From the NCBI RefSeq assembly GCF_017349295.1, contig NZ_JAFMPK010000035.1:1-64000 (forward strand): a DNA stretch of 64,000 nucleotides, read 5' to 3'. The DNA is from Myceligenerans salitolerans (GTDB lineage Bacteria > Actinomycetota > Actinomycetes > Actinomycetales > Cellulomonadaceae). The position numbers and the translations under genes are program-made. The notes beneath the pieces were generated by a model that saw nothing but the letters and a program-made list of their open reading frames with translations, made no database searches and was not told where the DNA came from. Of the stretch, positions 14,225 to 27,783 are shown piece after piece (positions within the stretch are counted from its first letter, which is position 1; the number at the start of each line of letters is the position of its first letter).

Positions 14225-14386
14225 GGGCATAACGCGCGTCCTGGCTGCCATGGGCAGGGGTACATCTAGTGGTTTGACGAATCGGTTCGGCGACTCGTTC
14301 GGCGAACCCGCCACGAACCGTACGAATCATCCCCGTGTCCAGGCAAATTGCTACCACGGTATGACGCGCCGGTCAACGGCTCGCCA

Positions 14387-14392
14387 TACGCT
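14387..14392 (+). promoter_or_regulatory. -10 element of NarL-type sensor kinase, leaderless
   Basis: TACGCT, 7 nt, then GTG 14400. Decides the start of the kinase against upstream in-frame ATG codons at 14250 and 14361. Confidence 0.55.
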
Positions 14393-14399
14393 GGCCACC

Positions 14400-15848
14400 G
14401 TGGAGAGCCCCAGTCTGTACGAACGCGTGTCCGGGTGGTTCGAGCGCCATCGCTTCGCCACCGACGTGACCGTGGCGGTGGTCCTCGGGGGCTTCGTGCT
14501 CGTCGCCGCGGTCGGCGCCACCGAGGCGATGGTCTGGGCATCCGGGCTGCCGGGATGGTTCCCCGCCGTGTGGTCCGCGCTCATGATGGTGCCGATGGCC
14601 TGGGTGCGGACCCGGCCGGTCGCCTCGACGGGCGCCATGGTGGTGCTCGCGCTGGCCCACATGGGGCTCGGGGTGCCCGTCATGCTCCCTGCCGACCTGA
14701 TGCTTCCCTACTCCCTCTACGGCCTGACCGCCTACGGGCCGCGGTGGGGACCGCGGGCGGGCATCATCGCGGCGGCGGCCGGCTGTTTCCTGCTCTACCT
14801 GGAGACCAAGTTTCTGACCGGCGACACCGGCGGCGGCGCCGAGGCCGCGGGGACCTTCGCCTTCCTCATCTTCTGCACCGCCTGGGCGCTGGGCCTGTTC
14901 CGCCGGTCCCGGCGGGCCATGCTGGACGCCCTGCGCGATCGCGCGGAGCGGCTGCAACTGGAGAGCGCCCAGCAGGCGACGATCGCGGCCGGGGCCGAAC
15001 GCGCGCGCATCGCCCGGGAGATGCACGACGTCGTCGCGCACTCCCTGTCGGTCGTCATCGCCCAGGCCGACGGCGGCCGCTACGCCGCCCGGGCCGACCC
15101 GGAGGCGGCGAGCCGTGCCCTGGACACCATCGCGGAGACAGGTCGTGCGGCTCTGGCGGACATGCGCAAGATCCTCGGGGTGCTGCGCACGTCGCCCGAA
15201 CCGGGTGAGGCGCCGGGCGCACCGGCGTCGTCGGACGGGCCGGGCGCCACGGGCTCCGCCGCCGAGCCGGCTCCGATCGCCCCGCAGCCCGACGTCACCC
15301 AGATCGAGGCGCTCGTCGAGCAGTCCCGATCCGACGGGATGCGTGTCTCCTACGCCCGGATCGGCGAGGAGCGCCAGTTGCCGCCAGGCATCGGGCTCAA
15401 CATCTACCGCGTCGCCCAGGAGGCCCTCACGAACGTGCGCAAGCACGCCGGACCTGACCCCCGGGTGACCGTCCTGATCCGCTGGGGTGAACGCGAGATC
15501 GAGATGAAGGTGTCCGACGACGGGCGCGGGCTCGCCTCGAACAACCGGCCCGGTGCCCCCGGCGCGGGGTACGGTCTGGTCGGGATGCGGGAGCGCGCCG
15601 AGCTGTTCGGCGGGACGCTCACCGCCGGCGCGAGGTCCGGGGGCGGGTTCCAGGTGCGGTTCGTCGTGCCGGTGCCGGCCGCGCCGTCCGGCGCCGGGCA
15701 TCTCCGGTTCGCGCCGCACGAGACACCGGCTGACACGCCCGGGGCCGACGGCGCGCCGGCGGACGCTCCCGACGGAGCGCCACCTGGCGCGACGACCGGT
15801 GCCACGGCGGGCAGCTCCGCCCGCACAGCGACTGACGAGGAGTCATGA
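14400..15848 (+). CDS. NarL-family sensor histidine kinase (HisKA_3)
   Basis: 482-residue membrane kinase. Five or so helices (about 21-165) with little external sequence, then a dimerisation domain with His209 (AREMHDVVAHSLSVV), the HisKA_3 hallmark, and a HATPase_c domain (YRVAQEALTNVRKHAG, VSDDGRG, GYGLVGMRERAEL). The C-terminal 65 residues are Ala/Gly/Pro/Thr-rich and probably disordered. GTG 14400 is chosen because TACGCT lies 7 nt upstream and the N-terminus then leads directly to the first helix. Its stop overlaps the regulator start (ATGA at 15845-15848). Membrane-embedded sensors of this type often respond to envelope stress or antibiotics; here that is inference. Confidence 0.9.
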   Translation: MESPSLYERVSGWFERHRFATDVTVAVVLGGFVLVAAVGATEAMVWASGLPGWFPAVWSALMMVPMAWVRTRPVASTGAMVVLALAHMGLGVPVMLPADLMLPYSLYGLTAYGPRWGPRAGIIAAAAGCFLLYLETKFLTGDTGGGAEAAGTFAFLIFCTAWALGLFRRSRRAMLDALRDRAERLQLESAQQATIAAGAERARIAREMHDVVAHSLSVVIAQADGGRYAARADPEAASRALDTIAETGRAALADMRKILGVLRTSPEPGEAPGAPASSDGPGATGSAAEPAPIAPQPDVTQIEALVEQSRSDGMRVSYARIGEERQLPPGIGLNIYRVAQEALTNVRKHAGPDPRVTVLIRWGEREIEMKVSDDGRGLASNNRPGAPGAGYGLVGMRERAELFGGTLTAGARSGGGFQVRFVVPVPAAPSGAGHLRFAPHETPADTPGADGAPADAPDGAPPGATTGATAGSSARTATDEES

Positions 15849-16543
15849 CCGAGACCGCCGCCCCGACCCGCGTCGTCCTCGTCGACGACCAGCAGCTCGT
15901 CCGTGCGGGACTGCGCATGGTGATCGACTCGCAGCCCGACCTCACCGTCGTCGGCGAGGCGAGTGACGGCCTCCAGGCACTGCGCCTCCTCGCCGCCACC
16001 CCGGCCGACGTCGTCCTCATGGACGTGCGGATGCCCAACCTCAACGGCCTGCAGGCCACGGAACGGTTGCTGGGGGGCGACGGCGGAGGTGGTGCCGTAC
16101 CGCGCGTCGTCGTGCTGACGACGTTCGACCTCGACGAGTACGTGCTCGAGGCGATCCGGGTGGGCGCCAGCGGGTTTCTCCTCAAGGACGCGCCGCCGGA
16201 GGAACTGCTCGCCGCCGTGCGGACGGTGCACCGGGGCGACGCGGTGATCGCGCCGTCATCCACGCGGCGGCTGCTGGAGCACCTGGTCACCGCGCTGCCT
16301 ACGACCGATCCGCACGGCGCGGAGGCGCACCTGGCGCTGGGCGCGCTCACCGAGCGCGAACGCGAGGTGCTCGTGCTGATGGCGCGCGGCCGGTCGAACC
16401 AGGAGATCGCGGCGGAGCTGTACGTCGCCGAGGCGACCGTGAAGACGCACGTGGGGCGGGTCCTGGCCAAGCTGGGGGCGCGTGACCGCGTGCAGGCCGT
16501 GGTGACGGCGTACGAGACGGGGCTGGTGCGGCCGGGGGCGTGA
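15845..16543 (+). CDS. NarL/LuxR-family response regulator
   Basis: 232 residues. The receiver domain has Asp14-Asp15, phospho-acceptor Asp60 (VVLMDVRMPN), Thr in VVLTTFDLDEYV and Lys in FLLKDAPPEEL. The C-terminal LuxR helix-turn-helix reads LTEREREVLVLMARGRSN, then VAEATVKTHVGRVLAKLGAR. A short insertion (GGDGGGGAVPR) sits between receiver strands 3 and 4. Start overlaps the kinase stop, so the pair is translationally coupled. The downstream 238-bp gap and the toxin locus are on the same strand, but nothing shows they are regulated by it. Confidence 0.95.
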   Translation: MTETAAPTRVVLVDDQQLVRAGLRMVIDSQPDLTVVGEASDGLQALRLLAATPADVVLMDVRMPNLNGLQATERLLGGDGGGGAVPRVVVLTTFDLDEYVLEAIRVGASGFLLKDAPPEELLAAVRTVHRGDAVIAPSSTRRLLEHLVTALPTTDPHGAEAHLALGALTEREREVLVLMARGRSNQEIAAELYVAEATVKTHVGRVLAKLGARDRVQAVVTAYETGLVRPGA

Positions 16544-16781: not shown

Positions 16782-19700
16782 GTGGCGGTTCGACGTTCGA
16801 TGGCGGTTCGGTGGCCTGTTCTCGTGGCGGCGTTCGTGACCGTCGCTGCCTTGTTCGGTGTGGTGTTGGTGCCGGCGGTGTCGACACCGGCGTTCGCGGA
16901 TGAACTGCCGGTGACAGATCCCGTGTACGAAGGGCCTGAGGCCGAGGACGGTCCGACCGGGGACGGGCTGGCGGACGACGGTCGGCCGGTTCTCGAGGGA
17001 GCGGGTGACGGGTCGCAGCCGGTCGAGGACATCGAGGCGGTCTCACAGGCCGAGTCGGAGGCGCTGGCCGAGGCAGCGGAGACTGGCGAGGCGGTCGAGG
17101 TCGTCGCTCAGCGCTCCGAGCAGGGCGAGGTCTGGGCGCAGCCGGACGGCACCCTGGAGGGGCGTTCGTTCGTGGTTCCGCAGTGGACGCGGGCCGACGG
17201 TGATTGGGTCCGCGTGGACACCACGCTGCGGGAGGCCGACGGCGTGGTGGTACCGGTGGCTTCGACGGTGGATGTCGAGTTCTCCGCCGGTGGCGACGGG
17301 CCGCTGGTGCGGATAGACCGGATGGGCCGCGTGGTCGAGCTGACGTGGCCGGAGCCGCTGCCGAGTCCCGGTCTGGACGGTGACACCGCTACGTACAGCG
17401 AGGTACTGGACGGTGTGGACCTGCAGATGACGGCCACGGAAGACGGGTATGCCTCGTACTTCGTGGTGAAGACCCCCGAGGCTGCCACATCGCCGGAGCT
17501 GGCCGAGATCCGGTTCTCCCTGGAGACCCAGGGGCTCGACGTCTCGGAGACCGAGGACGGCGGGCTGGAAGCCCGGGACCAGGGCGCGGCCGGTGTGGTG
17601 TTCGCGGCTCCGCCGGCGGCGATGTGGGACACGGTTGCCGAGGAGCCGGATCAGGCCGGCGGGGAGTCCGCCGAGGCGACCTCCCTTCGGACGAGCGCTT
17701 CGGGTGCCGGCAGCGCGGACACCGCCGCGGACGCGGCGGGCGAGCATGGCGATCCCGACACGTTCGCCGAGGTTGGCGTCGAGGTCTCGGCGGAGCGCGA
17801 CCGGCTGACGCTGATCCCGGACCAGGGGTTGCTGAACGACCCGGAGACGACGTTCCCCGTGGTGATCGATCCGCAGTGGCACACGCCGAAGGCCGGAGCG
17901 TGGGCGTCGCCGAACAAGTCGTACCCGGACAACATGGGCTGGAAGTTCAACGGGAAGTCGACACAGGGCCTGGGCACGTGCACGGGCTGGTCGGACTGCC
18001 CGGGCGGGTCGACCTACCGGCTGATGTACCAGTTCGACGTGTCGCGGTTCAAGGGCACCAGGATCCTGTCCGCCGAGTTCGTGGTGAAGAACACGCACTC
18101 CGCGGTGTGCTCGAACCACCGTGTCGACCTGTGGCGTGTGGGGGCGATCAACTCGTCCAACACGTCGTGGAACAAGACGAGCAACTCGACGTTCTGGAAG
18201 GAACTGATCGCGCACGACTCGTTCCACTACGGCGGGAACCAGTCCACGTGCAACAGCGCGGCGGACGCGGAGTTCGGCATCCGGGACACGGTGCAGCAGT
18301 TCGCCGACAACCGTTGGGGGCGCCTGACGCTTGGCATGCGCGCGTACTCCGAGACCAACAAGTCGTACTGGAAGAAGTTCTCGCGCAACGGCTACGTGCG
18401 GGTGAAGTACAACCGTGCGCCCAACCGGATCAAGGCGACGCAGCTGTCGATGAACCCCGGCGGCTCCTGCGCGAAGTCGGGGGACGCACCGCGGATCCGG
18501 CAAATCGACAAGCTGGTTGCTTCGCAGGCCACGGACCCGGACGGGGACCGACTGCAGGTGCGGTTCACGATCACCGACACGAACAACAACCAGGTGTGGA
18601 CCTCGGGACTGGTGCCGTCGAGTTCGAAGGCGAATGGGTCGGCGTTCAGCGTGCAGGTGCCCAAGGCGGAGATCCCGGAGAACAAGCTGTTGCGGTGGGC
18701 GGTGCGCGTCTGGGACGGGCACGACACGAGCAAGTGGTCGTATGCGGACAGCGGCTGGCGGTGTCACTTCGTGTACGACACCTCACGGCCGAAGGAGCCG
18801 ACGATCACGTCCGCTCGGTGGCCCGCGTCCGACCCGGAGAACCCGGAGGACCCGTGGCTGGACGGCGTGGGACAGTCCGGTGGCTTCGACTTCTCGACGA
18901 CCTCGGGCGACGTGGTCAAGTACCGGTACGAAGTCAACGCGCAGCCGACCGGGTCGAGCCGGGAGGTGACCGCGGCGCAAGCGGGCTTCCACTTGATGCC
19001 CTCGGAACCAGGCGTCTACACCATCAACGCGCAGGCGCTGGACGCGGCAGGGAACAAGTCGACGACGGCGACCTACCAGGTGCGGATCGGATCGGGCCGG
19101 CCCCCGGTCTCCATGTGGGGGTTCGATGGTGCGGCGGCCGACAGTCCGCTGACGCTGTCCGGGGACGCCCATGTCGCCTCGATGCCGGCGGGCGAGCGTG
19201 TTGACGGTGACGCGCTGTTGCTTGACGGTGCCGGGGATTCAGGGATGGCGCCATCCTCCGAACGGGTTGCCACGACGTATTCGTTCGCCGTGGAGGCATG
19301 GGCGTACCTCGATACCAAGACGCCTGGGCAGGCAGTCGTGGTCTCGCAGGCCGGACCGGACTACATGGACTACAAGCTCTACTACACGGGTTCAGCCGAC
19401 GGCCGCAGTGATCGTTGGGCGTTCGGCCGGTACACCTCGGACCTGGCGATCATCGGCGTCGGATCGGACGTGCCTGTGCGGACCGGGCGATGGACCCACC
19501 TGGTGGGCGTGCACAACTCCATGACAAACCAGTTGCTGATCTACGTCGACGGTGTGCCAAGCACACCGCGATCGTTCTCGGACCCGGTCTCTGAGCTGGG
19601 TCCCGTCACCATCGGAGCTGGCCGCTACTCGGCAACCGCGAACCCGACATCGTTCTGGCCGGGCAGAGTCGACGGTGTGAACCTTTATGACCGGATGGTG

Positions 19701-20486
19701 CCCGTCGGGGAGGCTGCTGCGCTTGCGTACGCCCGGCCGTCGGTCGCGGCGCGTTGGTCGTTCGAGCCGACCACCGTCGACCCCACAGCGTCGCCGGTCA
19801 CGGTCGCGAGTGAGGTCGACACGACCGGCGGGCAGGGTCCGTCCTTGACGCTGTCCGCGGGCGCCGGGCTGAACCAGGAATGGTGGGTCGACGAGCAGGC
19901 GCTTGTGCTGGACGGAGTGGATGGATACGCGGCCACGTCTTCCGTGCCGCTGGACACCTCGAACTCGTTCACCCTGACTGGGTGGGCGCAGGCGGCCGGG
20001 GAACTCGACGGGTCCGCGACCGTGGCGGCGATCAACGGGTCGAGCGAGTCTGCCGTGCTGGTTGAGGCGGAACCCGGGATACCGGATGCCGAGGGGGAAC
20101 CTGCCGGGGTGACCTGGCGGCTGATCATGCGCGACGCAGATGGCTCGAGCGCGACAGTGGCTGAAGCGGTGGACACTTCGGAACTGTCCGCCACCGACTG
20201 GACTCACCTGGCGGTCGTGTACGACGCGGCGCGTCGAACGGCCCGCCTGGTGGTCAACGGAAACGACGCCGATGTGAACCCCATGATCGAGAACGTCGAC
20301 GTCTTCTCTGCCAGTGCCTCGGTTTCGGTGGGGCGTGGACGGTCAGCCGGCGCTTGGGGCGGGTACTGGCCCGGCCAGGTCGATGACGTGTGGCTGTTCA
20401 ACGGCACCTTGTCAGATGCGCAGATCAACCAGTTCCTCCACACCCAGTTCGGCATGCCGACCGAGGTTCCGGGGGGCGCGGAGTGA
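16782..20486 (+). CDS. Secreted DNRLRE- and LamG-domain protein, partner of RHS toxin
   Basis: 1234-residue exported protein. Signal peptide about 1-39 (VLVAAFVTVAALFG, then TPAFADE). An N-terminal region of about 300 residues typical of RHS-associated secreted proteins is followed by a DNRLRE domain (about 360-545, opening VDPQWHTPK, ending GYVRVKYNRAPN), an Ig-like segment, then two LamG/concanavalin-fold domains (about 779-985 and 990-1225, ARWSFEPTT and DDVWLFNGTLSDAQI). DNRLRE is the cell-wall-binding module found at the N-terminus of WapA, where it is fused to the RHS shell. Here it is a separate gene whose stop overlaps the start of the RHS gene (GTGA, 20483-20486). It is likely the surface anchor or adhesin part of a split WapA-like system. 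Confidence 0.82.
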   Translation: MAVRRSMAVRWPVLVAAFVTVAALFGVVLVPAVSTPAFADELPVTDPVYEGPEAEDGPTGDGLADDGRPVLEGAGDGSQPVEDIEAVSQAESEALAEAAETGEAVEVVAQRSEQGEVWAQPDGTLEGRSFVVPQWTRADGDWVRVDTTLREADGVVVPVASTVDVEFSAGGDGPLVRIDRMGRVVELTWPEPLPSPGLDGDTATYSEVLDGVDLQMTATEDGYASYFVVKTPEAATSPELAEIRFSLETQGLDVSETEDGGLEARDQGAAGVVFAAPPAAMWDTVAEEPDQAGGESAEATSLRTSASGAGSADTAADAAGEHGDPDTFAEVGVEVSAERDRLTLIPDQGLLNDPETTFPVVIDPQWHTPKAGAWASPNKSYPDNMGWKFNGKSTQGLGTCTGWSDCPGGSTYRLMYQFDVSRFKGTRILSAEFVVKNTHSAVCSNHRVDLWRVGAINSSNTSWNKTSNSTFWKELIAHDSFHYGGNQSTCNSAADAEFGIRDTVQQFADNRWGRLTLGMRAYSETNKSYWKKFSRNGYVRVKYNRAPNRIKATQLSMNPGGSCAKSGDAPRIRQIDKLVASQATDPDGDRLQVRFTITDTNNNQVWTSGLVPSSSKANGSAFSVQVPKAEIPENKLLRWAVRVWDGHDTSKWSYADSGWRCHFVYDTSRPKEPTITSARWPASDPENPEDPWLDGVGQSGGFDFSTTSGDVVKYRYEVNAQPTGSSREVTAAQAGFHLMPSEPGVYTINAQALDAAGNKSTTATYQVRIGSGRPPVSMWGFDGAAADSPLTLSGDAHVASMPAGERVDGDALLLDGAGDSGMAPSSERVATTYSFAVEAWAYLDTKTPGQAVVVSQAGPDYMDYKLYYTGSADGRSDRWAFGRYTSDLAIIGVGSDVPVRTGRWTHLVGVHNSMTNQLLIYVDGVPSTPRSFSDPVSELGPVTIGAGRYSATANPTSFWPGRVDGVNLYDRMVPVGEAAALAYARPSVAARWSFEPTTVDPTASPVTVASEVDTTGGQGPSLTLSAGAGLNQEWWVDEQALVLDGVDGYAATSSVPLDTSNSFTLTGWAQAAGELDGSATVAAINGSSESAVLVEAEPGIPDAEGEPAGVTWRLIMRDADGSSATVAEAVDTSELSATDWTHLAVVYDAARRTARLVVNGNDADVNPMIENVDVFSASASVSVGRGRSAGAWGGYWPGQVDDVWLFNGTLSDAQINQFLHTQFGMPTEVPGGAE

Positions 20487-23400
20487 GCAACAACCGAACA
20501 CGATCCTCACGGGTGAAGGCCGCCGGGCGGCGCGGGAATGCGACGAAGCAGGAGAAAATGACGAGGATCTTGACCGCCCACGGCGCTTCTCGTAGAGACA
20601 GGCGCTGGTTGCAGCTGGTTGCTGGGATGATCGTGACCGGCTCCCTGGTCGGGACCCTCCTGGTGCCGGTCATGACGGCCCCGGCCGCCGCTGCGACGGT
20701 CGACCCACCTGATCCGGAGCCAGGTGTCGTGGTCGCCGGCGAGGACCACACGAAGGTGGCTGCCGCGAACACGGACATGCTGCCGGAGGTTGAGGCGCCG
20801 GCTGCCGACCTGCCTGAGCGGGGATCTGCGACCGTTCCCGTCGAACCCAGTGGTGTGACTCGTCGGAACGGAGCGGGCGCGGACCCCGACGAGAGTTCTG
20901 CTTGGCGCCCCACGCAGGTCGGTGGGATTCCGATCGCGTTCTCACCGGCAGGGGGCGCGAGCATCGAGGAAGTCGCCGTGCGCGTCCGCGAGGGCAAGGC
21001 TTCCGGGAACCCCGTAATCGAGTTGAGCCTGCCTGCAGGATCGACACCACAGGCCGCGAAGAATCACGACACGACCGACGTCGGCAATGTGACTACGGCG
21101 ACCGTCGACGTGCAGGTCGACTATTCCGCGTTCGCCGGCGCGTTCGGCGGCGACTATGCCGGCCGGCTCACGCTGGTGAACGAGAACGGAACACCGGTCG
21201 ACACGGTGAACGACGCGGAGAAGCAGACGCTGACCGCGCAGGGCGTCGAGCTGAGTGCTACCTCGCCGACGACGTTGGCTGTGGCGGCTACGACGGCAGG
21301 TGACACAGGGGATTTCGGCGCGACGCCGTTGGCGAAGGCTGCATCGTGGTCGACGGATCTGCGGTCGGGTTCGTTCGCGTGGAACTATCCGATCGGTGTG
21401 CCGGATGTCCCTGGGTCTTTCACGCCGACGCTGGGACTTTCGTACAACTCGGGCGGGATCGATGGGCGCACCTCGAGCACGAACAACCAGGCTTCGCTGG
21501 TGGGCGACGGGTTTGATCTGTGGCCCGGCTACATCGAGCGCAAGTACAAGTCCTGCTCGATCGACGACGTCAAGAACGATGAGGGTCGCGCGATCGGCGA
21601 CCAGTGCTGGGACTACGACAACGCGCACATCTCGTTCAACGGCGCGGCCGGCGAGTTGGTACCTGACGGCGAGAATTCCTGGCGTCTGGCCAAGGACGAC
21701 GGCACGAAGGTCGATCTGCTCACGAACAGCGCTCGCGCCAACGGTGACAACAACAACGAGTACTGGCGAGTGACGACTCCTGAAGGTGTGAAGTACTTCT
21801 TCGGCTATCACCGTTTGCCGGGCTGGAGCTCGGGCGACAGGGCGACGAACTCGACATGGACGGTTCCGGTCCTGGGTGACGACGCGGGAGATCCCTGCCA
21901 TGCGTCCACGCGGGCTGGGTCCGTGTGTGATCAGGGGTGGCGGTGGAACCTGGACTACGCGGTGGACCCTGCGGGGAACGTGATCGCCTACTACTACAGC
22001 AAGGGCAACAATTCCTACGGCAGCCTGGGGGATCCGGAGAACAACGTTCGCTACACGCGAGGCGGGACGCTCAACCGGATCGACTACGGCCTGGATTCGT
22101 CGGATGTGTCAGGGGCGACGCCACTGGGGCGGGTGACGTTCGGATACAGCGAACGGTGTATTCCCGGCGCTGTCGAGGGATTCGGGTGTAGCGCCATCAA
22201 CGAACAGCCCAACGGCTGGTTCGACACGCCGTGGGACCTGAACTGCAGCGCGACGGCGACGTGCGACAACGGCCGTACCTCTCCGTCGTTCTGGGGCCGC
22301 AAGCGCCTGACGTCGATCGCCACGAAGGTGAACGTCGACGGTGCGTTCACGCCGGTGGACTCGTGGGACCTGACGCATGAGTGGGGGACCGCGGACACCG
22401 ACTATCAGCTGCTGCTGAAGTCGATCATCCGCACCGGAGAGACCGGTCATGCCACGGACGCCGACCTGGCCGGTGACATCACGTTGCCGCCGGTCGAGTT
22501 CGGCTACGAGCAACTGGTCAACCGGTTGGACGAAACGGGGGACGGGCAGGCCCCGTTCGTCAAGGCTCGCCTGGCCACCATCGTGGACGAGACCGGGGGA
22601 CAGGTCGACGTCGGTTACTCCGAACCGGCGTGCGACGCGACGAACCTCCCGGCGGAGAACACCAACACCACCCGCTGTTTCCCGCAGCGTCGGCTGCCCG
22701 GGGCGGATCTGTCGCCGGTCACGGACTGGTTCAACAAATACGTCGTCACCTCCACGGTGACGACCGACAGGACGGGCGGCGCACCGGACACCGAGACGCG
22801 TTACCAGTACCTGGGTGGGGGCGCCTGGCACTGGGACGACGCCACCGGTATCACACCGGATGAGGAGAAGACCTGGTCGGACTGGCGCGGCTACGGCCAC
22901 GTGCGGACCACGAAGGGGTCAGTGACCGAGCAGATCAGCCAGTCGGAATCCTGGTTTCTGCGCGGCATGGACGGTGACCGCTCCGACCGGTCCGGCGGCA
23001 CTCGTTCCGTCGAGGTCGAGCTCGGCACCGGCGAAGGAGACCCGATCGCTGACAGCGATTGGCTGTCCGGCTTCACCTACAAGACGGCCCAGTACTCCGA
23101 GATCGACGGCCAGGTCCTGTCCAAGTCGGTCAATCGGCCCTGGTGGCACCGTACGGCCATCAGTCAGCGTGACTGGGGCACCATCCGATCTGGATTTCTC
23201 CGCACGGCCGAGACGAAGACGTGGACCTCGCTGGGGACCGGCGGGTCGCCCTGGCGTGTGACGCAGACCAACACCACGTATGACGACACGGTGGCCGGCA
23301 GAGTGCTCGAGGTCACCGACCGTGGGGACACGAGCACGAGTGGTGACGAGCGCTGCTCGAAGATGGAGTACGCCACCAACACCACCAAGAACATCTTGGG

Positions 23401-26400
23401 CCTGCACGAACGCAAGCAGACTTGGGCGGTGCGGTGCGACCAGACGCCTGACCGCGTGAACGGCGACGTCATCAACGACGTCCGCTACGCCTACGACGGT
23501 CAGGGATATGGGGCCGCACCGACGGCGGGGCGCATCACCCGGACCGCCGATCTCGCCGGGTTCGACGGTACGACTGCCCAGTACGTCGAAGCGTCTTCCA
23601 CCTACGACGCCTACGGCCGGGTCACGTCGGTGACCGACCTGTCCGCTGATTTGGCCGTGACGTCGAACGGCGAGGGCGCACTGACGCGCACGCCCCGGTC
23701 CGACGGCCGGACCGCGACCACGTCATACACCCCGGCCAGTGGGTTTGCCACCTCGATGACCGAGACCACACCGCCTGCCACGCCAGGGGACTCCGCGACG
23801 GCACTGGCCAACACCACGACACTCGATCCGCGGCGCGGGACACCCACGCGTGTCGTGGACACCAATGGCAAGAACACGTTCGTGCGCACCGACGCGCTGG
23901 GGCGCACGGTCAAGGTGTGGCTGTCGAACCGGGCGACCTCTTCGACGCCCTCCATGCAGTACACCTACCGGATTGCCAAGAACACACCGGTCGCGGTCGG
24001 TACCGCAACGATCAACGACGCGGAACAGCAGCAGACTTCCTGGACGATCTACGACGGGCAACTGCGCGAACGACAGACCCAGTCCCCGGGGCCTGAGGGT
24101 GGCCGGATCATCACCGATACGTTCTATGACGCGCGCGGTCTCAACCACCAGTCCTACGAGCCGTACTACAACGACCAAGCACCGAACGCGGCAATCTTCG
24201 ACCCGTATGACTCGTCGGCCGTCGACACGATGATCCGCACCGACTTCGACGGCACAGGCCGTCCGACCAGGTCGCGGACGATGTACAGCGATTCGGACGG
24301 GGAATACACGGTCGGCGCAACCAGGTGGATCTATCGCGGCGACCGCACGACGACGATCCCGCCGAGCGGCGCGACGGCAATGACCGCGATCACGGATGCA
24401 CGGGGGCAGACGGTCGAACTGCGTCGGCACGAGGATGCCGCCTCCGCCGGTCCTGAGGACACTTCAGGGTTCGACTCGACCAGCTACACATACACAACCC
24501 GCGGGGAACTGGCGACGGTCGCCGACCCGGAAGGTAACCAGTGGTCCTACGAGTTCGACCAGCGCGGCCGGCAGGTATCGGCTACCGATCCCGATGCAGG
24601 GACCACGACCAGCACCTATGACGACCGTGGCCAACTGGTTATGACCACCAATGCCGCGAACGAGACGACGTGGAACGCCTATGACGGTCTCGGGCGACCG
24701 ATCGAGACTCGTCAGGATGGCCCGACCGGAGAGCTGATCTCTTCGTGGACCTACGACACGGTCTCGGGAGCCAAGGGACAGCCGGCGTCGTCCACGTCGT
24801 ACGTGGACGGCAACGCGTACACGACGCGCGTCACCCACTACGACTCGCTGTACCGGCCGCTGCGCAACCTGGTACAGATCCCCGCGGTCGAGGGCGACCT
24901 GGCCGGCAACTACATGACCAGCACGGGCTACACCCCCGCTGGCAACATCAGCGGTATCGGAATGCCTGCTGCGGGATCGCTTCCGGGCCAGGCTGTCGTG
25001 TTCGACTACGACGACGCCACCAACTGGCTGCGCGACGTCGACTTCGCCAACGGCCTGCACGCCGAAAGCACCTACGACTACACCGGCAAACTGACCCAGA
25101 TCGACATGTCCACGGGCCTGGGCCGGAACGTGTACGCCACCAACACCTACGAGGACGGCACCAACAGGCTGTCCACCTTCCGCGTCGACCGGCTCGACCA
25201 GCTCGGCGTGGACCGGTACGAGACATACGAGTACGACGACGCCGGGAACGTCCTGTCCCTCAAGGACGTGTCTCGCACCGGTACGGACGTGCAGTGCTTC
25301 ACATACGACCACCTGACCCAGCTCACCGAAGCGTGGGCGCAGGACACGCCGGGTTGCGAGTCGGGTGGAGCTGCTGCCGAGACGGCTGGCACCCTGGGTG
25401 GCCCAGCCCCCTACTGGCACGAATGGACCTACGACGGGGCCGGCTCCCGGCAGAGCGAAATTCTCCACGGCATCGGCGGCACGGACACACCTACTGACGT
25501 ATCGCGCCAGTACACCTACGACACCGCCCAGCCCCACACGGCCACGTCCGTGAACCAGCAGGTCGCCGCCGGTGACAGCAGCCCGGCGGTTGACTCGCTC
25601 GAGCAGTACGCCTACGACGCGGTGGGGCGAACCATCTCCCGCCAGATCAACGGTGACACGCAGACGCTGGACTGGGGTCCCGACGGTCGCCTTGCAGCGG
25701 TCACAAACGCCGACGAGTCCGGCGCAGAGTACATCTACGACGCAGACGGGCAGCGGCTCATCGGTCGCAGTACCGACGCCGATGGCGCTACCGAAAGCAC
25801 CCTGTACCTCGGGCACACCGAGATCACGGTCAGCTCGGCCGAACCTGGCGTGGAACGCGCTACCCGCTACATCGACGTTGGCGGTGGGCACGTGGCCGTG
25901 ATCGACGACCAGGGTGGCACTGAGTTCGTCATGGCCGACCACCACGGCACCGGCCAACTCACCATCAACGCCGCCGACACCTCACAGGTCTCCCAACGCC
26001 GCACCACTCCGTTCGGCACCGAACGCGGCACCGACAGCATCCCCCTCGGAGAATGGCCCGGCTCGCGCGGATTCGTCGGCGGCTACGACGACCGTGAAAC
26101 CACCGTCCTGGTCTCTTTGGGAGCACGCGAGTACGACCCTGCTCTGGGCAGATTCATCAGTCTGGATCCGATCATGGACCTGACTGACCCGACTCAGATG
26201 CACGGGTACAACTACGCCAACAACAGTCCCATCACTCTGTCTGATCCCGACGGTCTCGAACCGCGCCCGTGGCACGAGGAAGACAAGGGCTTCTCTGATT
26301 TCGACGACGAGGTCATCGACGACTATGACGGCGACCTGGATGGAAGCACCGTCGCGGGCGGCGGTCTCTGGGGCGCGGGCGGGGACACGTCCGACACCGG

Positions 26401-27514
26401 CGGCGGAGCTGCGGCCGACGGCGCCGGCAGCCAAGGTCCTGCCTCGACCGGTCCCACAGCCCAAGAGATCGCTCATGCCCAGGAAGTGATGGACAAGTCC
26501 ATCACGGACGTCGCCTTCGAGCTCGGCTTCGAGGCCATCAAGGACTTCATCGGCTGGAACGACCTCATGGGCTGCGTCAACGACGGCTCGGTCGGTGCCT
26601 GCGCCTCACTTGTTCTCGGCGTCGTCCCCATAGGCAAGGTCGCCAAGGCGCTCAAGGTCGTCACAAACATCGTCATCGGCGGCATCAAGTTCTACAACCA
26701 GCAGAAGAAGGCTCGCAAGCTTCTCGAGGCTGCCGGGAGCACATGCAACAGCTTCGCACCGGGAACACTGGTCCTGCTCGCAGATGGCACCTGGAAACCT
26801 ATCGAGGACATCGAACTCGGGGACGACGTCCTCGCCGCAGATGAAGACACAGGCGAGACAACCCAAGGGCGCGAAGTTACCGCCCTCATTACTGGTGAGG
26901 GTGAAAAGACGCTGGTCACCCTCGTCGTGACCGACGATCGCGGCGACACGCAACAGATCGTCGCCACCGACGAGCACCCATTCTGGGTGTCCGAGCTTGA
27001 GGCCTGGGTCGACGCGATCGACTTGACCTCCGGAGATTGGCTTCAGACCTCGGCAGGAACACGGGCGCAGGTTACGGCGGTTCATCTCCAGCGTAATCAC
27101 GCGGTCGTTCATAACCTGGCTGTGGCGACCGATCACACTTACTACGTCGCCGCTGACGAGGATGCCAGTCCACTTCTCGTCCACAATGACTCCTGTCCCT
27201 TGCTGCCATCGGATGAGGCCCGTGCTGCCTTCAACAAACAGCTGAAGAAGTACGGCAAGGACGGATTCAAAGTGCTTGAGGGTGGTCGGGTCCGATTTTA
27301 TGGCAGAGTGTCTCCCGCTTCTAACCCTGGCGAAATGGTAGGACGTCGGATGGTTCGTGAGTGGGATCCGATAACGGGGGGTAAGAGGATCTGGCATGAA
27401 ACTATCGACGGCGATGGTCAAGTGCGGATCGTGCGTCCTGACGTTAACGTAACAGGCGGATCCAAAGTGCACTACGTGTTCGACCGTTCTGGGAGATTTA
27501 CTGGGAGATTCTAG
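20483..27514 (+). CDS. RHS/YD-repeat polymorphic toxin with Hint domain and unassigned C-terminal toxin
   Basis: 2343-residue secreted toxin. A signal peptide hydrophobic core lies at about 42-58. Actinobacterial RHS N-terminal region (FAWNYPIGVPDVPG), many YD repeats (such as YDGLGRPIETRQDG) forming a hollow shell, RHS core near 1884-1925 (YDPALGRFISLDP to SDPDGLEP), a hydrophobic pretoxin segment, Hint autoprotease 2088-2236 (Cys2088 in CNSFAPGTLVLLADG; block B ATDEHPFW; end LLVHND), then a 107-residue C-terminal domain (2237-2343) I cannot assign. Hint would free the tip. GTG 20483 overlaps the upstream stop; ATG 20558, with AGGAG only 3 nt before it, would give a shorter ordinary signal peptide. 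Base composition loosens towards the 3' end, as in exchangeable toxin tips. Confidence 0.9.
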   Translation: MSNNRTRSSRVKAAGRRGNATKQEKMTRILTAHGASRRDRRWLQLVAGMIVTGSLVGTLLVPVMTAPAAAATVDPPDPEPGVVVAGEDHTKVAAANTDMLPEVEAPAADLPERGSATVPVEPSGVTRRNGAGADPDESSAWRPTQVGGIPIAFSPAGGASIEEVAVRVREGKASGNPVIELSLPAGSTPQAAKNHDTTDVGNVTTATVDVQVDYSAFAGAFGGDYAGRLTLVNENGTPVDTVNDAEKQTLTAQGVELSATSPTTLAVAATTAGDTGDFGATPLAKAASWSTDLRSGSFAWNYPIGVPDVPGSFTPTLGLSYNSGGIDGRTSSTNNQASLVGDGFDLWPGYIERKYKSCSIDDVKNDEGRAIGDQCWDYDNAHISFNGAAGELVPDGENSWRLAKDDGTKVDLLTNSARANGDNNNEYWRVTTPEGVKYFFGYHRLPGWSSGDRATNSTWTVPVLGDDAGDPCHASTRAGSVCDQGWRWNLDYAVDPAGNVIAYYYSKGNNSYGSLGDPENNVRYTRGGTLNRIDYGLDSSDVSGATPLGRVTFGYSERCIPGAVEGFGCSAINEQPNGWFDTPWDLNCSATATCDNGRTSPSFWGRKRLTSIATKVNVDGAFTPVDSWDLTHEWGTADTDYQLLLKSIIRTGETGHATDADLAGDITLPPVEFGYEQLVNRLDETGDGQAPFVKARLATIVDETGGQVDVGYSEPACDATNLPAENTNTTRCFPQRRLPGADLSPVTDWFNKYVVTSTVTTDRTGGAPDTETRYQYLGGGAWHWDDATGITPDEEKTWSDWRGYGHVRTTKGSVTEQISQSESWFLRGMDGDRSDRSGGTRSVEVELGTGEGDPIADSDWLSGFTYKTAQYSEIDGQVLSKSVNRPWWHRTAISQRDWGTIRSGFLRTAETKTWTSLGTGGSPWRVTQTNTTYDDTVAGRVLEVTDRGDTSTSGDERCSKMEYATNTTKNILGLHERKQTWAVRCDQTPDRVNGDVINDVRYAYDGQGYGAAPTAGRITRTADLAGFDGTTAQYVEASSTYDAYGRVTSVTDLSADLAVTSNGEGALTRTPRSDGRTATTSYTPASGFATSMTETTPPATPGDSATALANTTTLDPRRGTPTRVVDTNGKNTFVRTDALGRTVKVWLSNRATSSTPSMQYTYRIAKNTPVAVGTATINDAEQQQTSWTIYDGQLRERQTQSPGPEGGRIITDTFYDARGLNHQSYEPYYNDQAPNAAIFDPYDSSAVDTMIRTDFDGTGRPTRSRTMYSDSDGEYTVGATRWIYRGDRTTTIPPSGATAMTAITDARGQTVELRRHEDAASAGPEDTSGFDSTSYTYTTRGELATVADPEGNQWSYEFDQRGRQVSATDPDAGTTTSTYDDRGQLVMTTNAANETTWNAYDGLGRPIETRQDGPTGELISSWTYDTVSGAKGQPASSTSYVDGNAYTTRVTHYDSLYRPLRNLVQIPAVEGDLAGNYMTSTGYTPAGNISGIGMPAAGSLPGQAVVFDYDDATNWLRDVDFANGLHAESTYDYTGKLTQIDMSTGLGRNVYATNTYEDGTNRLSTFRVDRLDQLGVDRYETYEYDDAGNVLSLKDVSRTGTDVQCFTYDHLTQLTEAWAQDTPGCESGGAAAETAGTLGGPAPYWHEWTYDGAGSRQSEILHGIGGTDTPTDVSRQYTYDTAQPHTATSVNQQVAAGDSSPAVDSLEQYAYDAVGRTISRQINGDTQTLDWGPDGRLAAVTNADESGAEYIYDADGQRLIGRSTDADGATESTLYLGHTEITVSSAEPGVERATRYIDVGGGHVAVIDDQGGTEFVMADHHGTGQLTINAADTSQVSQRRTTPFGTERGTDSIPLGEWPGSRGFVGGYDDRETTVLVSLGAREYDPALGRFISLDPIMDLTDPTQMHGYNYANNSPITLSDPDGLEPRPWHEEDKGFSDFDDEVIDDYDGDLDGSTVAGGGLWGAGGDTSDTGGGAAADGAGSQGPASTGPTAQEIAHAQEVMDKSITDVAFELGFEAIKDFIGWNDLMGCVNDGSVGACASLVLGVVPIGKVAKALKVVTNIVIGGIKFYNQQKKARKLLEAAGSTCNSFAPGTLVLLADGTWKPIEDIELGDDVLAADEDTGETTQGREVTALITGEGEKTLVTLVVTDDRGDTQQIVATDEHPFWVSELEAWVDAIDLTSGDWLQTSAGTRAQVTAVHLQRNHAVVHNLAVATDHTYYVAADEDASPLLVHNDSCPLLPSDEARAAFNKQLKKYGKDGFKVLEGGRVRFYGRVSPASNPGEMVGRRMVREWDPITGGKRIWHETIDGDGQVRIVRPDVNVTGGSKVHYVFDRSGRFTGRF

Positions 27515-27516
27515 CG

Positions 27517-27783
27517 ATGGGTGTTTTAAATAGGTTGGACGTGATGTTCCGCCTTCGAGGGCTCTCTGCTGCCCGCACAAGCCGGTCCGAAGTTGCGGAG
27601 TGGGCGATGGGATTTTTGCGAGACGAAGAGATGGAGATTCGTGACCGATGTATTGAGATTGCACTTGATCGAATGGCTGGTGCCGACCTATTGGTTGCTC
27701 CTGGAGAATGGTTGCACAGTCGTGAAGATTTCCGGCTATGGCTCCGCGAGTTCAAGCAATGTGTTGGAGATGGCGGGGAATAG
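27517..27783 (+). CDS. Small protein, presumed immunity to the RHS toxin
   Basis: 88-residue protein with no recognised domain and no signal peptide, so cytoplasmic. Start 2 bp after the toxin stop, with GGGAG about 9 nt upstream. It is mostly predicted helical and acidic in its second half (FLRDEEMEIRDRC, WLREFKQCVGDGGE). Its codons use far more A and T at third positions than neighbouring genes (for example ATTTTGCGA-like strings), as expected for a recently exchanged cassette. Position immediately after a toxin tip is the classical place of the cognate immunity gene; function is inferred from that alone. No second toxin-immunity cassette follows. Confidence 0.65.
   Translation: MGVLNRLDVMFRLRGLSAARTSRSEVAEWAMGFLRDEEMEIRDRCIEIALDRMAGADLLVAPGEWLHSREDFRLWLREFKQCVGDGGE

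What the first reader, a model, noticed from the sequence alone, without database searches (positions are those of the whole stretch)
27189..27511. Unassigned 107-residue toxin tip behind a Hint domain
The tip after LLVHND contains conserved-looking features (NPGEMVGRRMVREWDP, then RIWHETIDGDGQVRIVRP, and HYVFDRSGRFTGRF) that I cannot match to a nuclease, deaminase, ADP-ribosyltransferase or peptidase family. The two His-containing motifs (WHETID, VHYVFD) with several arginines would suit an RNase-like active site, but that is a guess.
Basis: partly seen in the sequence, partly recalled or inferred. Interest (0 to 1): 0.72.

Follow-up and report, generated by a model that had tools for sequence, protein, structure and literature searches.

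The report
Ntox9-family toxin tip with immunity gene
The last 107 residues of this huge secreted RHS protein are not an unknown toxin: they belong to a toxin family named Ntox9 in 2012, never tested as far as could be found and absent from today's family databases, and the small gene right behind it is the conserved partner that most likely protects the producer.

Summary
The tip is real (27191-27511, 107 aa, after a PT-HINT domain) but not unassignable. It has no hit in Pfam, NCBIfam or PDB because its family, Ntox9 (Zhang et al. 2012), is in none of them. Two tests support membership. Nine family members share exactly the published Ntox9 signature: RxY (R35, Y37), E (E57), WxE (W68, E70), H (H94). 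The published exemplar, a PrsW-RHS-Ntox9 protein of Streptomyces violaceusniger, was found in that strain's genome; its C-terminus is 60% identical to this tip. The likeliest activity, following the 2012 prediction, is a metal-independent colicin-E3-like RNase; an AlphaFold model gave no known fold, so this stays inferred. What is added: the 88-aa gene 2 bp downstream (27517-27783) has a homologue directly behind the toxin in every relative examined (leave-one-out E 4.5e-8 to 7e-31), across Actinomycetota, alpha- and betaproteobacteria and Chlamydiota; the 2012 table lists no immunity protein for Ntox9. Tip and partner form a low-GC cassette (54%, window 71%) swapped between different Hint domains. 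A new member of a known, uncharacterised kind.

The parts
20483..27514 (+). RHS-repeat polymorphic toxin gene (2343 aa if begun at GTG 20483, which overlaps the stop of the gene before; mechanical ORF from 20390); signal-peptide-like stretch near the N terminus
   Evidence: (RHS_repeat, Rhs_assc_core, PT-HINT)
26771..27190 (+). PT-HINT autoprocessing domain, ending ...YYVAADEDASPLLVHND
   Evidence: Pfam PF07591 E 2.1e-21, residues 24-163 of window:26702-27511
27191..27511 (+). Ntox9 toxin domain, 107 aa; invariant R33, R35, Y37, E57, R66, W68, E70, H94 in the family alignment
   Evidence: signature in PMC3482391
27517..27783 (+). conserved immunity-protein gene, 88 aa, 2-bp gap after the toxin stop codon
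   Evidence: homologue directly behind the toxin in all relatives examined; leave-one-out profile E 4.5e-8 to 6.9e-31

Best explanation
The tip is an Ntox9-family toxin domain of an RHS/PT-HINT polymorphic toxin. Most likely course: the large RHS protein is exported; the Hint domain cuts behind ...LLVHND and frees the 107-residue tip; the tip enters a neighbouring bacterium and acts there as a metal-independent endoribonuclease, using one histidine (H94) together with glutamates (E57, E70) and arginines (R35, R66) that lie on adjacent antiparallel strands, in the manner predicted for colicin E3. Producer and kin are protected by the 88-residue protein encoded 2 bp downstream. Shown here: family membership (about 0.95), conserved residues, Hint domain, conserved linkage of the partner gene, cassette exchange. 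Inferred: cleavage site, delivery, RNase activity, neutralisation.
For: Published Ntox9 signature 'mostly beta; RxY, E, WxE and H; mechanism likely similar to colicin E3' (PMC3482391) is met residue by residue in nine members. The named exemplar architecture PrsW-RHS-Ntox9 of S. violaceus(niger) was recovered: genome G1242 is S. violaceusniger Tu 4113 (100% over 4 kb of a plasmid of equal length), its ORF carries PrsW (E 1.3e-9) and 16 RHS repeats, it is the only RHS fusion of the two PrsW genes there, and its tip is 60% identical to the window's. Model: N-terminal helix plus antiparallel strands, pLDDT 81, i.e. mostly beta as predicted. Partner gene. Cassette: Hint 36% but tip 78% identical to the Isoptericola protein; GC 54.5% (tip) and 53% (partner) against 71%.
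Against: No structure match: best Foldseek E 0.08, best Z 6.2 to an engineered OspA sheet, so the colicin-E3 analogy has no structural support here. The model rests on only two sequences. No assay of any member was found. The RNase call is a prediction from residue pattern made by the authors of the family.
Confidence: 0.62

Rival explanations
1. It is an Ntox9 toxin, but the family is not an RNase: it modifies a protein or nucleotide, or cuts DNA, using the same R/Y/E/W-E/H face.
For: No fold match to any RNase among the listed hits; no biochemical work on the family found.
Against: No metal-binding or NAD-binding signature recognised among the invariant residues; the family's authors place it with metal-independent RNases.
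Confidence: 0.3
2. Two-histidine RNase A-like active site.
For: Both histidines are present in the window, Isoptericola, S. violaceusniger and Rhizobium members.
Against: H69 is E, M or Y in the Cupriavidus, Protochlamydia and L006 members while W68 and E70 stay invariant.
Confidence: 0.04
3. A decayed tip without activity.
For: None beyond lack of experiment.
Against: Open frame, all invariant residues kept, dN 0.18 with saturated dS against Isoptericola, partner gene kept.
Confidence: 0.03

Closest known systems
Ntox9 (Zhang, de Souza, Anantharaman, Iyer, Aravind 2012, PMC3482391)
   Same: Same residue signature, mostly-beta domain at the C terminus of RHS proteins, same phyla; 60% identity to the named S. 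violaceusniger exemplar.
   Different: Processing here is by a PT-HINT domain, not the PrsW listed for Ntox9; a conserved immunity gene is identified, where the 2012 table gives none.
Colicin E3-type rRNase (Tox-ColE3)
   Same: Predicted by the family's authors to share the mechanism: one His with acidic and basic residues, no metal.
   Different: No sequence match (PDB searches); not among the listed structural matches; membership not claimed.
BECR-fold and two-histidine RNase toxins (Ntox18, 19, 22, 26, 30, 50; EndoU; RNase A-like)
   Same: RHS/Hint tips with small immunity genes.
   Different: These groups are defined by two conserved His; this family has one. No Pfam hit of the tip to any Ntox or EndoU model held there.

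Membership tests
Ntox9 | Invariant RxY, E, WxE and H in this order | tested here: met
   R35-x-Y37, E57, W68-x-E70, H94 identical in all members that cover the position; signature text
Ntox9 | Homology to the named exemplar, PrsW-RHS-Ntox9 of S. violaceus(niger), gi 307326465 | tested here: met
   S. violaceusniger Tu 4113 PrsW-RHS ORF, tip 60% identical over 94 aa, pairwise E 5e-46; the gi number itself could not be looked up, identity rests on strain and unique architecture
Ntox9 | Mostly beta secondary structure | tested here: met
   AlphaFold2 model pLDDT 81: one N-terminal helix, then seven short strands and a short helix
Ntox9 | Occurrence in Actinobacteria, alpha- and betaproteobacteria, chlamydiae, with RHS repeats | tested here: met
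   Actinomycetota, Rhizobium, Cupriavidus, Protochlamydia
Ntox9 | Colicin-E3-like RNase activity | not testable with these tools
   Prediction of the 2012 authors; no assay found
Colicin E3 cytotoxic RNase fold | Shared fold | tested here: inconclusive
   Not among listed Foldseek/VIA matches; a missing match does not exclude it
Two-histidine metal-independent RNases (RNase A-like) | Two conserved catalytic histidines | tested here: not met
   Only H94 invariant; H69 varies H/E/M/Y
RHS/PT-HINT polymorphic toxin system | RHS core, pretoxin Hint, variable C-terminal tip, adjacent immunity gene | tested here: met

The most novel reading that the evidence does not exclude
Ntox9 is a distinct single-histidine enzyme with a fold not yet solved, and the small helical protein behind it is the founding member of an unnamed immunity superfamily that also occurs as orphan genes in other actinobacteria.
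Probability: 0.35. Interest if true: 0.5.

Novelty: new member of a known kind. Interest (0 to 1): 0.33.

Why it matters
It shows that automated annotation misses a toxin family named fourteen years ago, because no Pfam or NCBIfam model catches it. It supplies the alignment, the invariant residues and, for the first time as far as the library searched shows, a conserved immunity partner, so the family's predicted colicin-E3-like mechanism can be tested directly with a toxin/immunity pair from an environmental actinobacterium.

Tried and rejected
Pfam, NCBIfam, PADLOC and PDB sequence searches of the tip gave nothing. Only a weak PHROGs match, phrog_27306, E 0.003-0.006 (three members at most), not pursued because the family is unnamed. 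Viral contigs: no relative with profile or pattern scans. Phage records: none. Structure searches: no listed match is convincing; OspA-sheet matches at Z 5-6 were read as a generic antiparallel sheet. Colicin E3 and other RNase folds are absent from the lists, which does not exclude them. Genome hits L007 and L010 (E 2e-4, 5e-4) were rejected as chance: L010 lies in another reading frame of an unrelated gene. The immunity protein model was too poor to search (pLDDT 56). The immunity profile's weak PDB match (5i8l, E 0.002) is a sum of short repeats and was not trusted. The reading that every immunity homologue marks an Ntox9 toxin was rejected: four actinobacterial homologues stand without an Ntox9 gene beside them.

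Full report
What is there. The ORF 20390-27514 (+) encodes an RHS protein with an Rhs-associated core and a PT-HINT domain close to its end. After ...LLVHND come 107 residues, codons 27191-27511, then TAG. Two bases on, at 27517, an 88-aa ORF begins. The next gene is purK, so no further tip cassettes follow.

Database status. The tip has no match in Pfam, NCBIfam or the PDB, and none of nine family members has a meaningful one.

Relatives. Searches with the tip and then with a profile found Isoptericola luteus (78%, L002/L008), Streptomyces violaceusniger (60%, L041/L042), Rhizobium sullae pWSM1592_1 (55%, L003), an actinobacterium of another family (50% over the C-terminal half, L006), Cupriavidus metallidurans CH34 (L005) and three copies on the Protochlamydia naegleriophila plasmid (L004, L011). 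It is rare: 1 to 3 hits per 200-400 genomes of the phylum.

Identification. In the 2012 survey of polymorphic toxins (PMC3482391) the row Ntox9 reads: mostly beta; RxY, E, WxE and H; catalytic mechanism likely similar to colicin E3; Actinobacteria, alpha-, beta-, gammaproteobacteria, Bacteroidetes, chlamydiae, fusobacteria; no immunity protein; PrsW; RHS. The alignment of nine members has R35, Y37, E57, W68, E70 and H94 invariant wherever covered, which is that signature in that order. The text names one exemplar, an RHS protein of Streptomyces violaceus with an N-terminal PrsW domain (gi 307326465). A search of 287 genomes of what proved to be Streptomyces gave exactly one hit, in a genome identified as S. 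violaceusniger Tu 4113 by 100% identity over 4 kb to plasmid NC_015951.1 of the same length. The hit is the end of a 1739-aa frame with PrsW and 16 RHS repeats, and of the two PrsW genes in that genome only this one is so fused. The tip is 60% identical to the window's over 94 residues. Membership in Ntox9 is therefore as good as tested; the gi record itself could not be opened.

Active site. H69, the histidine of WHETID, is H, E, M or Y in relatives; R79 and R82 also vary. H94 of VHYVF does not. The two-histidine RNase idea is therefore not supported. In the AlphaFold model (two sequences, pLDDT 81, pTM 0.68) an N-terminal helix is followed by antiparallel strands; R35 and Y37 lie on strand 34-37, E57 on 51-58, R66, W68 and E70 on 65-72, H94 just before 95-97. 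Residues two apart on a strand point to one face, and in the 51-58/65-72 hairpin E57 should face R66, so the invariant residues very likely form one patch; this is inference from positions, no coordinates were available. Fold searches gave nothing convincing.

Partner gene. The 88-aa product has no family match. The gene directly behind each relative's toxin encodes a homologue. In a leave-one-out test on nine toxin loci, a profile of the other eight found that neighbour each time, E 4.5e-8 to 6.9e-31 against 2072 frames (in L011, which holds two pairs, both neighbours were found and the one still in the profile can rank first: the left-out ones scored 1.5e-18 and 2.5e-11). The upper end of the range, 6.9e-31, is such an in-profile score; for the truly left-out genes the best value is 5.8e-21. 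In the Protochlamydia locus one neighbour (L011:1195-1437) was found before it had been used in any profile. Weaker homologues also stand alone in other actinobacteria, as orphan immunity genes do. The 2012 paper lists none for Ntox9, and no other paper in the library names the family.

Cassette. Between window and Isoptericola the Hint part is 36% and the tip 78% identical; GC falls from 66% (RHS part) to 54.5% (tip) and 53% (partner) and rises to 73% in purK. Tip plus partner look like a unit that has moved together. Against Isoptericola dN is 0.18 with dS saturated, so the tip is under selection.

Verdict. An ordinary architecture with a rare, described but uncharacterised tip. The likely mechanism is metal-independent RNA cleavage as its authors proposed; that remains a prediction. 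The useful addition is the partner gene and the corrected active-site residues.

Noticed in passing
window 27517-27783: Immunity-like 88-aa protein family without any Pfam or NCBIfam model; weaker homologues occur as orphan genes in other actinobacteria (L036-L039).
   Followed up: partly
window 16782-20486: 1234-aa probably secreted protein with two Laminin_G_3 stretches whose stop overlaps the likely GTG start of the RHS toxin gene; probably co-expressed, role unknown.
   Followed up: no
window 14250-16543: Two-component pair (HisKA_3 kinase and LuxR-type regulator) just upstream of the toxin genes.
   Followed up: no
L006:1342-1671: Ntox9 C-terminal half at the end of a 110-aa frame with a hydrophobic segment instead of an RHS context, with the immunity homologue behind it; may be a truncated or frame-broken copy.
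   Followed up: no
L048:1456-1632: A Neisseria gonorrhoeae record holds a short stretch resembling the Ntox9 C-terminus (E 1.8e-5 in one 3-kb locus); the 2012 table lists MafB carriers for Ntox9.
   Followed up: partly
window 27191-27511 versus PHROGs: Weak match of three members to phrog_27306 (E 0.003-0.006), a phage family of unknown function.
   Followed up: no
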